NCBI RefSeq assembly: GCF_023822005.2
Contig: NZ_CP098806.1
Coordinates: 4,402,001 to 4,466,000, forward strand
Source of the DNA: Dyadobacter fanqingshengii
Lineage (GTDB): Bacteria; Bacteroidota; Bacteroidia; Cytophagales; Spirosomataceae
DNA: 64,000 nt
Direction: 5' to 3'
Shown: positions 32,887-35,905 of the stretch, one piece after another
Layout of the letters: each line of letters starts with the position of its first letter
Position numbering within the stretch: the first letter of the stretch is position 1
Made by a program: the position numbers and the translations under genes
The notes under the pieces: generated by a model
What the model saw: the letters and a program-made list of their open reading frames with translations, nothing else
What the model was told of the DNA's origin: nothing
Databases searched by the model: none

Positions 32887-34425
32887 ATGCAAAAATTCTC
32901 TCCTTTCAGACCCTTTGCGTCGTGCATTTCATTTCTTCTTGTTTTTGTACTTGCGTTTTCAAACCAGTCTTGTCAGGATGACTTTGACGGTAAGAATTCT
33001 CCCGAAAAAAGCGCGACCGAAAAGGTCATGGCGACTGAGGACAAAATGCTCAGCTACGATCAGTTTTTGCAACAGGTCAAAGGGTTTAAGGACAAAGAAA
33101 TGTACAGCCATTTCAAGTCCAGCGCCGAGAAAAACCTTCGATCCAGCGAAAAAATCGTATTTCCTTTTCCGCTTTTGCCCAGCACAACGGATAGTGTCCG
33201 GAAAATCACAGTCAACAATCACACTACTTACACCATTCCCGTCTATCGCAGGTCCCACACCGGCACTGTATTCCGAAACATTATCATAGACTCAACCGAT
33301 GCAGGTGTCAAGGCATATTTAGCCTGGTATTTCCCGGACAAGAAGTGGATCCAGGAATACAAGAAAGACCGTAAGCGGAGCTTCTACGGAACTGTGATCA
33401 TGAACAACTACGACGGTCTGCCATCCAGCGGAAGACCCGAAGGGCGTGCTAATCTGGTTCCCGTTTGCGCATCTGTAATGGTGCTGTCCAGCATTGTAGA
33501 ACATTTGTGCTGCCATAACTCGCAGCATACATCGTGTGGCTGCCCGACAGGAACTAAATATTACTTTGAATATCAATACAGCACGGTAACGACCTGCATT
33601 GACTCTTATATCGACTCATTTGGCGGTTATGGAGGTTCGGGAAGTGGAACCGGAGGAGGTGGAGGTGGAACCGTCCCAAATCCTGGCGGTGGTTATGACC
33701 CTTGTGTACAACCTAAGACAGGAACTGGAAAAACGCCATGCACGCCGAACACGCCTGACCCAGGGCCGGTTGTTGTGCCCAATGCGGCGGCAGCGCCGAT
33801 TGTTAATACTGCTAAGGCTAAGGGCATAATCTTCACTTCGACGGAGATTGCGGTGCTAAATTCGCTGAGCCCAGCTATGGCAACAAGGGTAAACGCTTTA
33901 ATATCAAAGTTTGGAGATATGGTTACCAAGAATTTCGACAATTTAATAATCAATTTGACCGGCAAAGCCTTAACGCCAAAGGAGAAGGAGGCCCTCGACG
34001 CGCTTGCAGATCAGCTTCAAAGCTATAAGTTGTTAATGAGATTATTTTACGCAGCGAACGCTTATGCGGCTGAAAATCTTACTGGTGTAAAATTTAATTC
34101 TTTTGGCGCAACATGCTCTAATTGTAAAGCAAACGCATTCAAGCACGCATTATTTCTAATATTTAACGCTGAAACTTTCACAATCAAATCTGCCGAGACA
34201 CTTGCAAGCGCACATGAGTTAAACAGTGCAGGCATTGATAGAACAATGGATGAAATTAATAATGCAGCAGGCAGTTCAATATTCAAACAATTTGGCCAAA
34301 CTGGTACGGATTCGCAATGGGCCGACCGTGTTAAAGCGGCGACTAACGTAGGGCAACATGGCTTAGTATTTGTGAAAAATGCAGCTTTGGTTAGTACAAC
34401 TAATTTTGACCCAAATTGCCCATGA
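32887..34425 (+). CDS. Surface lipoprotein with C-terminal toxin-like (DUF6973-type) domain
   Basis: 512 residues. The N-terminal signal ends at a candidate lipidated Cys29 (FSNQSC; the -3 position is atypical). Residues 30-200 form an unrecognised domain. A Cys/His cluster lies at 208-219 (CC, H210, H214, C217, C219), and a Gly-rich linker spans about 247-270 with Pro-rich spacer after it. The last ~110 residues carry NAFKHAL (His420), SAHE (His443-Glu444) and MDEINN (Asp455, Asn458-459). From memory this pattern matches DUF6973, found at the C-termini of polymorphic-toxin proteins. Two paralogous membrane-anchored proteins follow, fitting an immunity role. The enzymatic target is unknown. 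Confidence 0.7.
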   Translation: MQKFSPFRPFASCISFLLVFVLAFSNQSCQDDFDGKNSPEKSATEKVMATEDKMLSYDQFLQQVKGFKDKEMYSHFKSSAEKNLRSSEKIVFPFPLLPSTTDSVRKITVNNHTTYTIPVYRRSHTGTVFRNIIIDSTDAGVKAYLAWYFPDKKWIQEYKKDRKRSFYGTVIMNNYDGLPSSGRPEGRANLVPVCASVMVLSSIVEHLCCHNSQHTSCGCPTGTKYYFEYQYSTVTTCIDSYIDSFGGYGGSGSGTGGGGGGTVPNPGGGYDPCVQPKTGTGKTPCTPNTPDPGPVVVPNAAAAPIVNTAKAKGIIFTSTEIAVLNSLSPAMATRVNALISKFGDMVTKNFDNLIINLTGKALTPKEKEALDALADQLQSYKLLMRLFYAANAYAAENLTGVKFNSFGATCSNCKANAFKHALFLIFNAETFTIKSAETLASAHELNSAGIDRTMDEINNAAGSSIFKQFGQTGTDSQWADRVKAATNVGQHGLVFVKNAALVSTTNFDPNCP

Positions 34426-34502
34426 CCTGATAGACGCTAACCTTACATATCAATCATTTTCATGAGAAAGCTTATCTATTTTCCAAAAACCCGTCATACA
34501 CC

Positions 34503-35090
34503 ATGAGGATATTACTATTCTTTTTGATGACCATTACCCTAATTCTTTACTTAGCTACTAAGCCCTGGCAAACTGATGGAACCTGTGATCAGGTCGCACA
34601 GGTACATTTTAGAGGAATTAATTTTCAATTTCCTTTGAAGATTAAAAGCGTGTTGAACCCTCAAATTCATGGATTTATACGAAACTCATCATGGCTACAG
34701 ACTGATTATTTTGGCAGTAATCAGATCTCAACTAAATGGTTTTTTAATTGGGACAACGACTGGAACGGTCAACAAGAAATAAGTGATGCATTGAAAGAGA
34801 AAAGGATCTTTGGGATTGCATTTGAACTTCATAAGGATAGTTGTAAGACAGATCAGGAGATCATTTCGGAAATTCAAAAGATTTATCCGGGCAATTACCG
34901 GCATTTTGAAAACCATGGAAATACATCTTACATATGGGAGCGTGATTGTCTGACCATTTTTGTGAAAAGGGCAAACCAGTATCCCGCAAAATACAGCGTA
35001 CCGGAGGTATCATTTTGCTATGGACTTGACGATGAGCAAATAAATATTTACGCTACCTATACTGGATATATCAACCATTATCCTGATTAA
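34503..35090 (+). CDS. Membrane-anchored protein, candidate immunity protein, copy 1
   Basis: 195 residues. One N-terminal hydrophobic segment (residues 3-19, ILLFFLMTITLILYLAT) anchors a soluble domain that should face the periplasm. It is paralogous to the next gene (about 60-65% identity by eye), with shared blocks FRGI-FQFP, DSCKTDQEI, PGNY, ENHGN-SYIWER, LTIFVKRA, PEVSFCY and DDEQ...YATYTGYI. No known family is recognised. It starts 77 bp after the toxin-like gene in the same direction. Immunity against that protein is inferred from context only. Confidence 0.7.
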   Translation: MRILLFFLMTITLILYLATKPWQTDGTCDQVAQVHFRGINFQFPLKIKSVLNPQIHGFIRNSSWLQTDYFGSNQISTKWFFNWDNDWNGQQEISDALKEKRIFGIAFELHKDSCKTDQEIISEIQKIYPGNYRHFENHGNTSYIWERDCLTIFVKRANQYPAKYSVPEVSFCYGLDDEQINIYATYTGYINHYPD

Positions 35091-35162
35091 CTTAATTAAT
35101 GCCAATCCGTAATCACAGCTCATTAAAAAACTTCTATATATTCTAAAAAGCTCTTTTACATT

Positions 35163-35771
35163 TTGGATAATCTTTTATCCATCTTGGGTAAAATCATTGT
35201 TGCCTCCCTGATCGGCCTCTTCATTCTTTATCTATCTTTTCAAAACAAGATGGATGATAAAAAATACGAGGAAGATGCGAAGGTAAATTTCCGGGGGATC
35301 AAGTTTCAGTTTCCCATGAGAGTGCATGGTGTGCTGAAAACGCCTATGAGTGGCTTTTCCAGAAACTATATGTGGTTACAAACGGACTCTATCGGCTGTA
35401 AAAATATCTCTGCCAAGTGGTTTTTTGATTTTGATAACCAATGGAAAAAGCCCGACGAAATCTCAGATGAATTAAAACAAACATTAACGTACGGTGTTGC
35501 ATTCGAGCTTCATGAAGACAGCTGCAAAACGGATCAGGAAATTGTTGCGGAGATTCAAAACCTTTATCCGGGCAATTACAAATATGTGGAAAACCATGGA
35601 AATGCATCTTATATATGGGAGCGGGCCCCCCTGACCATCTTTGTCAAGAGAGCTTATCAATATCCTGCGGGGTACAGCATTCCAGAGGTTTCATTTTGTT
35701 ACTCGCTTGATGATGAGCAGAAAGAAATTTACGCAACCTATACTGGGTACATTGACAATTATCCTGATTGA
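35163..35771 (+). CDS. Membrane-anchored protein, candidate immunity protein, copy 2
   Basis: 202 residues from a TTG start at 35163. No ATG exists between the upstream in-frame stop (35124) and the membrane segment LSILGKIIVASLIGLFILYLSF, which matches the anchor of copy 1, so a non-ATG start is needed. The soluble domain aligns with copy 1 to the last residue (YTGYI..YPD). The spacer before it also resembles the spacer before copy 1, so the duplicated unit included the leader. Unknown family; possible second immunity protein. Confidence 0.7.
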   Translation: MDNLLSILGKIIVASLIGLFILYLSFQNKMDDKKYEEDAKVNFRGIKFQFPMRVHGVLKTPMSGFSRNYMWLQTDSIGCKNISAKWFFDFDNQWKKPDEISDELKQTLTYGVAFELHEDSCKTDQEIVAEIQNLYPGNYKYVENHGNASYIWERAPLTIFVKRAYQYPAGYSIPEVSFCYSLDDEQKEIYATYTGYIDNYPD

Positions 35772-35826: not shown

Positions 35827-35832
35827 AAGTTG

Positions 35833-35905
35833 TGGTGATGGACGGAATCGAACCGCCGACACAAGGATTTTCAGTCCTTTGCTCTACCGACTGAGCTACA
35901 TCACC
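35833..35905 (-). tRNA. tRNA-Phe (anticodon GAA)
   Basis: The reverse complement folds as a complete cloverleaf: acceptor GGTGATG/CATCACC with discriminator A, anticodon loop CTGAAAA (anticodon GAA), T-loop TTCGATT. The length is 73 nt and CCA is not encoded. Confidence 0.95.

What the first reader, a model, noticed from the sequence alone, without database searches (positions are those of the whole stretch)
32887..35771. Candidate surface toxin with two duplicated membrane-anchored immunity proteins
One island holds a 512-residue predicted lipoprotein (N-terminal unknown domain, Cys/His cluster, Gly/Pro-rich linker) whose last ~110 residues carry NAFKHAL, SAHE and MDEINN, a pattern I associate with DUF6973 of polymorphic toxins. 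Directly downstream on the same strand are two paralogues (~60-65% identity by eye), each a single membrane helix plus a soluble domain that should face the periplasm. The duplicated unit includes the leader before each gene. The arrangement fits a toxin and tandem immunity proteins, and I know of no named system with these parts. The target cannot be told from sequence.
Basis: partly seen in the sequence, partly recalled or inferred. Interest (0 to 1): 0.82.

Follow-up and report, generated by a model that had tools for sequence, protein, structure and literature searches.

The report
Wnt-like lipoprotein toxin with immunity array
A Dyadobacter bacterium appears to carry a surface-anchored weapon whose business end is probably a bacterial relative of animal Wnt proteins, thought to attack cell-envelope lipids, followed by two membrane-anchored protector proteins that belong to a fast-changing gene array; it is a new branch of a toxin class that has been predicted on paper but hardly tested.

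Summary
The 512-residue lipoprotein ends in DUF6973 (38 bits, cut-off 27), followed by two 60% identical membrane-anchored paralogues. A 17-row DUF6973 profile finds a Bacteroides fragilis T6SS effector (E 3e-12) and then six Wnt sequences (E 0.02-0.3); the window's subfamily alone does not. The motif fits 'Min-Wnt' lipocones (PMC12419801), predicted lipid head-group-cleaving toxins countered by periplasmic immunity proteins.

New here: (1) In 7 of 8 Dyadobacter genomes with the carrier, immunity genes directly follow an intact or split toxin; the eighth keeps two behind a deleted toxin. (2) The tip diverges on a constant carrier and co-varies with the first downstream gene (rho 0.81, 6 of 5,040), though its advantage over the carrier rests on one genome. 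Gene 1 is the likely cognate immunity; gene 2 belongs to an older, decaying lineage. (3) Elsewhere the carrier bears Tae4, DUF3289 and DUF4056 tips. (4) The immunity family matched no library searched; its model (pLDDT 78) only weakly resembles Mog1/PsbP folds.

Activity, target and delivery are inferred. Verdict: new variant of a known kind.

The parts
32887..34425 (+). Toxin: 512-aa lipoprotein, carrier plus DUF6973 / probable Min-Wnt tip
   Evidence: ORF; PF22322 38 bits
32887..32970 (+). Signal peptide up to the lipobox cysteine (residues 1-28)
   Evidence: sequence: SNQS-C; lipobox present in the 5 other intact orthologues
32971..32988 (+). Mature N-terminus C-QDDFD, resembling the Bacteroidota lipoprotein export signal (SDDFE, SDDDD, QKDDE)
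   Evidence: sequence; signal described in PMC5080379 (passages); two lipoproteins of this window that I take for SusD read C-NEEFL and C-EDYLS
33154..33576 (+). Carrier module (residues 90-230) with Cys/His cluster LCCHNxQHxxCxC
33619..33783 (+). Gly/Pro-rich linker (limits by eye)
   Evidence: sequence; pLDDT 20-47 here
33784..34422 (+). Diversifying toxin tip; His420, Glu444, Asp455 and Asn458/459 invariant in all 7 aligned sequences, window included
   Evidence: PF22322 match 34093-34347; mostly helical low-confidence model
34503..35090 (+). Imm1: likely cognate immunity protein, one N-terminal TM helix plus a domain that should face the periplasm
35163..35771 (+). Imm2: paralogue of an older lineage, TTG start, lacks the Cys found at Imm1 positions 28 and 149
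34460..34489 (+). 30-base leader block shared with 35120-35149 (23 of 30 identical)
35832..35905 (-). tRNA-Phe (gaa) directly behind the module

Best explanation
An interbacterial toxin-immunity module. The toxin is made with a lipoprotein signal and probably shown on the outer surface (inferred from the acidic C-QDDFD start). A carrier module and a flexible linker hold a tip of the DUF6973 / Min-Wnt type (Lipocone superfamily). After transfer to a neighbour's envelope by an unknown route, the tip is thought to use His420, Glu444 and Asp455 to cut a phosphate-linked lipid head group in the periplasm: lipid II or another carrier lipid, or a phospholipid. Imm1, anchored in the inner membrane with its domain in the periplasm, blocks the tip of sister cells. 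Imm2 is a retained paralogue from an earlier toxin allele. Arrays gain, lose and recombine immunity genes while the tip diversifies on a constant carrier. Shown by sequence: domain, pairing, tip divergence, co-variation, array turnover. Inferred: activity, substrate, surface display, delivery, binding.
For: DUF6973 match. Profile of 17 DUF6973 domains against solved structures, E up to 10: B. fragilis T6SS effector 9uu0 at 3.2e-12, and the other 6 of 7 sequences are all Wnt (0.022-0.3); Pfam wnt matched by 3 of 17 members, best 0.032. Invariant H, E, MD, NN fit the His/Glu/Asp site and part of the sNxxGR motif of the SAW clade. Immunity genes directly behind the toxin in 7 genomes, 2 kept behind a toxin with an internal deletion. 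Within 48 genomes of the genus, 8 have the carrier (one a remnant), 9 the immunity family, and the 8 are among the 9 (chance 2.4e-8 ignoring ancestry). Tip identity against G055 falls from 92-100% (residues 121-320) to 50-75%. Tip and first-gene identities correlate, rho 0.81, 6 of 5,040 permutations, 7 genomes. The carrier bears Tae4, DUF3289 and DUF4056 tips elsewhere, with carrier homology 97.7% by hhalign against 1.0% and 0.1% for two controls.
Against: The profile of the window's own subfamily alone finds neither Wnt nor 9uu0, and single-sequence searches find only chance-level chains, so the Wnt link runs through the wider DUF6973 family. This subfamily has lost the Arg of sNxxGR (NNAAGS). 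The toxin model is poor (pLDDT 49.5) and its fold search had no match at E 0.001 or better. Without G089 the carrier correlates with the first gene about as well as the tip does (0.79 and 0.81), and among the five genomes with a TM-type first gene the tip correlation is 0.64 (9 of 120). Four of 12 genomes hold distant immunity homologues with no toxin beside them. No activity, binding or export was measured.
Confidence: 0.72

Rival explanations
1. Toxin-immunity module as above, but delivered by the T6SS of this genome rather than from the surface as a lipoprotein.
For: The genome has a Bacteroidota-type TssC (PF17541, E 2.5e-145), and the closest solved relative of the DUF6973 profile is a T6SS effector.
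Against: The toxin has a lipoprotein signal, which T6SS cargo does not normally have (general knowledge). TssC lies about 1.9 Mb from the module, and I recognised no T6SS part among the ORFs of the window (most of these ORFs were not run through a family search).
Confidence: 0.15
2. The DUF6973 lipoprotein is a housekeeping or self-directed lipid enzyme of the envelope, and the downstream proteins are accessory subunits or regulators.
For: Lipocones also act in lipid metabolism (abstract of PMC12419801), and DUF6973 is common in this family (65 of 222 genomes).
Against: Patchy presence (carrier in 8 of 48 genomes of the genus), array expansion, tip divergence on a constant carrier, alternative tips, integrases beside 4 of the loci.
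Confidence: 0.08
3. A predation or diffusible weapon used against other species, where the downstream genes protect but are not cognate to one tip.
For: PMC12419801 describes secreted Min-Wnt proteins used between species.
Against: In that paper such systems usually lack an immunity gene; here the 7 genomes with a toxin tip all have one directly behind it, and the first gene co-varies with the tip.
Confidence: 0.05

Closest known systems
Min-Wnt polymorphic toxins of the Lipocone superfamily (Burroughs, Nicastro and Aravind 2025, PMC12419801; abstract, sections 5, 7, 9, 12, 29, 30, 31 and found passages seen)
   Same: H / E / D pattern, NNxxG motif, lipobox, C-terminal tip, membrane-anchored or lipoprotein immunity proteins; the paper also reports different tips on one carrier.
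   Different: The text search for DUF6973 did not return this paper; here R of sNxxGR is lost; the immunity family is not clearly one of its listed folds; long immunity arrays are not mentioned in the sections I read.
Lipobox plus Cystatin-like carrier system (same paper, section 29)
   Same: Lipoprotein N-terminal module carrying lipocone and other envelope-directed tips.
   Different: The cystatin fold could not be confirmed: a low-confidence model with helices followed by four strands, two cystatins among insignificant hits (E 3.0 and 3.5). A Tae4 tip is not in the list of that section.
Bacteroides fragilis T6SS effector, PDB 9uu0
   Same: Closest solved relative of the DUF6973 profile (E 3.2e-12).
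   Different: T6SS cargo; my searches found no paper on it.
TelC / TipC of Streptococcus (via PMC12419801)
   Same: Lipocone toxin acting outside the cytoplasm with an immunity protein working there.
   Different: T7SS cargo; another lipocone family; NCBIfam gave no match for the window's immunity proteins.
Toxins delivered by outer-membrane exchange in myxobacteria (PMC5562445; start of abstract in a listing only; the name SitA and its lipoprotein nature are recalled)
   Same: Polymorphic lipoprotein toxins used for kin discrimination.
   Different: Delivered by outer-membrane exchange through TraA; no such receptor was looked for here.

Membership tests
DUF6973 (PF22322) | Score over the curated cut-off | tested here: met
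   38 bits against 27
Min-Wnt / SAW clade of Lipocones | His (H2), Glu (H3), Asp (H4) | tested here: met
   H420, E444, D455 invariant in all 7 aligned sequences and in all 17 rows of the wider alignment
Min-Wnt / SAW clade of Lipocones | sNxxGR motif in H4 | tested here: inconclusive
   NNAAGS here: N, N and G kept, R lost; by my count 6 of the 12 more distant rows have GR
Min-Wnt / SAW clade of Lipocones | Sequence similarity to Wnt | tested here: inconclusive
   Wide DUF6973 profile: Wnt chains at E 0.022-0.3, Pfam wnt 3 of 17 members, best 0.032. Own subfamily alone: none
Min-Wnt / SAW clade of Lipocones | Four-helix cone plus fifth helix | tested here: inconclusive
   Model has helices at protein residues 378-404, 411-428, 433-442, 450-468 and 475-487, in the expected order, pLDDT 44-67 by blocks from residue 399 on; no significant fold match
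Min-Wnt / SAW clade of Lipocones | Lipid head-group cleavage | not testable with these tools
   needs an assay
Polymorphic toxin system | Conserved N-terminal part with variable C-terminal tip | tested here: met
Polymorphic toxin system | Linked cognate immunity gene | tested here: inconclusive
   Linkage is clear; cognacy rests on co-variation in 7 genomes, with the G089 caveat; protection was not tested
BamE-like immunity family of PMC12419801 | Two-helix hairpin followed by three strands | tested here: not met
   Model of Imm1, pLDDT 78: TM helix, five strands with one four-residue helix among them, one helix, four strands, one helix
Alpha plus four-strand immunity family with four absolutely conserved cysteines (PMC12419801) | Helix followed by four strands | tested here: met
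   H117-125 then E133-137, E140-147, E150-159, E164-173, but with further N-terminal strands
Alpha plus four-strand immunity family with four absolutely conserved cysteines (PMC12419801) | Four absolutely conserved Cys | tested here: not met
   Cys at Imm1 positions 28, 114, 149, 172 in 25, 15, 25 and 26 of 28 sequences
T9SS cargo | C-terminal sorting domain | tested here: not met
   The C-terminus is the DUF6973 tip, the only Pfam match at E up to 1; a SprA match shows T9SS parts in the genome

The most novel reading that the evidence does not exclude
The downstream proteins are an undescribed immunity family for Wnt-like lipid toxins, with a fold near Mog1/PsbP (by recall, the fold class of T6SS Eag chaperones), kept in recombining arrays of up to six genes that mix membrane-helix and lipoprotein anchors. 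When the tip is exchanged, a new cognate gene enters next to the toxin and older ones stay downstream as inherited resistance to earlier alleles, so the array is a readable record of past toxin alleles.
Probability: 0.4. Interest if true: 0.65.

Novelty: new variant of a known kind. Interest (0 to 1): 0.55.

Why it matters
PMC12419801 proposes bacterial Min-Wnt domains as the progenitors of animal Wnt proteins, and states that the only experimentally characterised lipocone toxins are of the TelC family. This module is a compact test case in an environmental genus: naturally diverged tips on one carrier, with diverged first immunity genes, would let cognate specificity and lipid chemistry be tested directly. 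The shared carrier with Tae4, DUF3289 and DUF4056 tips points to a wider surface-lipoprotein weapon class in Bacteroidota.

Tried and rejected
Structure of the toxin: 484 residues with 6 aligned rows gave pLDDT 49.5, and its PDB fold search had no match at E 0.001 or better; used only for helix order. Structure of Imm1: 15 rows, pLDDT 78.2; its fold search also had none at E 0.001 or better (best Mog1p 1eq6, E 0.049, TM about 0.3). By my own labelling (recalled fold class for Mog1p, EagT6, PA94, LpqN, SciW), 8 of the 50 rows shown are of the Mog1/PsbP class; a lead, not a result. Pfam, NCBIfam and PADLOC gave no family over a cut-off for the immunity proteins; the weak Pfam names seen (OpcA 0.12, SpaA 0.0049, Big_8 0.029) are below their cut-offs, and Pfam on 15 members gave 8 such names. 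The PDB profile search gave talin and synaptotagmin-like chains at 0.39-0.42. Viral contigs: 61 pattern matches, none a relative. Of 125 pattern matches in genome contigs, 4 were relatives. An immunity search over 390 genomes drawn from the order found 9; the only one outside the family was a weak hit, G525 (E 4e-5), in a region whose ORFs do not look related, and it was dropped. G332 (E 0.009, stops inside) was not followed. A T6SS origin was considered: VipB model absent, Bacteroidota TssC present. In the Mantel test the seven genomes are the six with one intact toxin ORF plus G054 in two separate pieces; G079 (no tip) was left out.
Full report
Observation. The three ORFs are at the stated coordinates. 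The 512-residue protein starts with a lipoprotein signal, continues with a Cys/His-containing module and a Gly/Pro linker, and ends in DUF6973 (PF22322, E 1.4e-9, 38 bits against a cut-off of 27). The two downstream proteins are 60% identical, each with one N-terminal hydrophobic segment. The duplicated leader is a single 30-base block, 23 of 30 identical, reached by 3 of 500 shuffles. A tRNA-Phe gene follows at 35832-35905. GC is 37% and 40% in the immunity genes against 44.5% in the window.

What the tip is. An alignment of 17 DUF6973 domains (5 of this subfamily, 12 more distant) keeps H, E, M-D and N-N in every row, and N-A-F and the first H of H-E in nearly every row; the consensus reads NAFKHAxW, AHE and MDLxNNxxG. 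Searched against solved structures up to E 10, this profile finds a Bacteroides fragilis T6SS effector (9uu0, E 3.2e-12), and the remaining six of seven sequences are all Wnt proteins (E 0.022 to 0.3). Pfam wnt is the second most frequent family among the members (3 of 17, best 0.032). PMC12419801 (abstract, seven sections and found passages seen) defines the Lipocone superfamily with His, Glu and Asp on successive helices, and the SAW clade (Wnt, SAA) with sNxxGR and a fifth helix. The window's tip has His420, Glu444, Asp455 and NNAAG. The low-confidence model is helical in the expected order with a helix after the NN helix. Against this: the profile of the window's own subfamily alone finds neither Wnt nor 9uu0, R of the motif is lost, and the model gave no significant fold match. 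I file the tip as DUF6973 (tested) and as probable Min-Wnt (partly tested).

The pair. In 222 genomes of the bacterial family, the immunity protein is found in 12 and the toxin's N-terminal part in 9. Eight genomes have both, all of the window's genus. In G000, G055, G074, G089, G083, G070 and G054 the immunity genes follow the toxin directly; in G054 the toxin ORF is split in two. In G079 the toxin gene keeps only about its first 60 and last 35 codons (by eye), no DUF6973 match is found in that genome, and two intact immunity genes remain, as expected of protection outliving the weapon. Four genomes (G073, G155, G049, G163) carry distant homologues without a toxin beside them. Equal contig lengths identify G083, G070, G089 and G054 as Dyadobacter sp. 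CY323, D. luticola, sp. CY347 and D. bucti, hence the genus.

Tip divergence and co-variation. Against G055, residues 1-120 of the toxin are 78-85% identical in blocks of 40, residues 121-320 are 92-100%, and the rest 50-75%. Against G089, residues 121-280 are 92-98%, 281-320 75%, the rest 41-78%. G055 against G089 falls from 92-98% (121-280) and 80% (281-320) to 35-62%. Against the three more distant orthologues (G074, G083, G070) the contrast is weak or absent. Active-site residues stay invariant in all 7 aligned sequences. Across 7 genomes, tip identity correlates with identity of the first downstream gene (rho 0.81; 6 of 5,040 permutations), carrier identity does so less (0.33; 792 of 5,040), and carrier identity follows the best-matching immunity pair of each two arrays (0.76; 78 of 5,040). 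Leaving out single genomes keeps the tip correlation at 0.75-0.83, but without G089 the carrier correlates at 0.79 too, so the contrast depends on that genome; in the five genomes with a TM-type first gene the values are 0.64 (9 of 120) for the tip and 0.38 (25 of 120) for the carrier. G089 shows why: its carrier is nearly the window's (88%), its tip differs, a lipoprotein-type immunity gene stands first, and its orthologue of the window's Imm1 (87%) stands second. G055 is the counter-case: its tip differs from the window's (62%), yet its first gene is an Imm1 orthologue (82%).

Arrays. Behind a toxin, counts run from one gene (G070) to six (G054); G089 has four with the last broken, G083 three intact plus broken pieces. 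The tree puts the window's two genes in two lineages: Imm1 with G055 gene 1 and G089 gene 2; Imm2 with G055 gene 2, G089 gene 4 and G074 gene 2. Imm2's lineage lacks the Cys of Imm1 position 28 in 3 of 4 members, and the window copy also that at 149; in G055 its C-terminus departs from the others and in G089 it is interrupted. G055 gene 1 looks like a chimera: its first 50 alignment columns follow G089 gene 3, the rest Imm1. Anchors are membrane helices in some and lipoboxes in others, within one array in G089 and G083.

Localisation. The toxin's mature start is C-QDDFD. PMC5080379 (passages read) describes a surface lipoprotein signal of a polar or charged residue followed by acidic ones (QKDDE, SDDDD, SDDFE). 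Two lipoproteins of this window that I take for SusD start C-NEEFL and C-EDYLS. Of the 11 immunity sequences flagged as lipoproteins, by eye 10 have no two adjacent acidic residues in the five positions after the Cys (for example C-SDRRF, C-ESYER, C-SQLGT); G054 gene 3 (C-EPDER) does. I infer toxin outside, immunity facing the periplasm.

The carrier. A profile of the N-terminal module that includes it finds again, at E 5e-40, a 537-residue lipoprotein of G146 (first seen at E 9e-6) that ends in Tae4 (E 1e-17). In 395 genomes drawn from the class (5 with a match, own genome included) it finds three proteins in G899 (one with a DUF3289 tip, E 5e-15; one with an unassigned tip; one cut short), two in G856 (one with a DUF4056 tip, E 9e-6; one unassigned) and one in G268 (unassigned). 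DUF4056 is itself a lipocone family in PMC12419801. By eye, several of these are followed by small tandem paralogues, for example three 149-residue lipoproteins behind the G899 copy in L127. Profile comparison gives 97.7% (E 1.7e-12) for the two carrier sets against 1.0% and 0.1% for two unrelated alignments; the second set was itself found with a related profile, so this is support, not an independent test. It agrees with the 'lipobox plus Cystatin-like' system of PMC12419801; the cystatin fold itself was not established.

Immunity fold. The Imm1 model (pLDDT 78.2, pTM 0.74) is a TM helix, five strands (with a four-residue helix among them), a helix, four strands and a last helix. It is not BamE-like. 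It resembles the paper's helix-plus-four-strands type in order, but the four absolutely conserved cysteines are not met. Insignificant fold hits lean to Mog1/PsbP-class proteins (best E 0.049).

Mechanism and limits. Most likely: surface lipoprotein weapon, periplasmic attack on a phosphate-linked lipid head group, blocked by membrane-anchored Imm1, with Imm2 as inherited protection against earlier alleles. Substrate, delivery and binding are inferences. The T6SS of this genome (TssC) cannot be excluded as a route, but the lipoprotein signal speaks against it.

Literature. No paper in the library holds 'DUF6973' or 'PF22322' and only PMC12419801 holds 'Min-Wnt'; searches aimed at the 9uu0 effector listed nothing relevant by title and abstract start. 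These searches cover open-licence PubMed Central only.

Noticed in passing
G000:C1:2178668-2178817 (L002:1561-1851): A second, truncated DUF6973 remnant in the same genome, followed by a 141-aa lipoprotein ORF: perhaps another decayed toxin with its immunity gene.
   Followed up: partly
L071:385-1995 (G146): Same carrier fused to a Tae4 amidase tip, followed by a 125-aa lipoprotein ORF (reaching the end of the stretch) as candidate immunity gene with no Pfam family at E 0.1.
   Followed up: partly
L125, L126, L127 (G899): Three carriers of nearly identical N-terminal part (92-97%) in one genome with different C-terminal ends and, by eye, tandem small paralogues behind them.
   Followed up: partly
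L073, L074, L075, L076, downstream of the immunity genes: Tyrosine recombinases (PF00589, PF13102, PF17293) behind the module in four genomes; the window and G070 have a tRNA-Phe there.
   Followed up: partly
window 34462-34506: A 14-codon reading frame (MRKLIYFPKTRHTP, read by eye) ends in an ATGA overlap with the Imm1 start; it may be a coupling leader or the vestige of an older N-terminus.
   Followed up: no
G054 array (L078): Immunity genes 1 and 3 (91%) and 2 and 4 (99%) suggest a recent two-gene tandem duplication.
   Followed up: no
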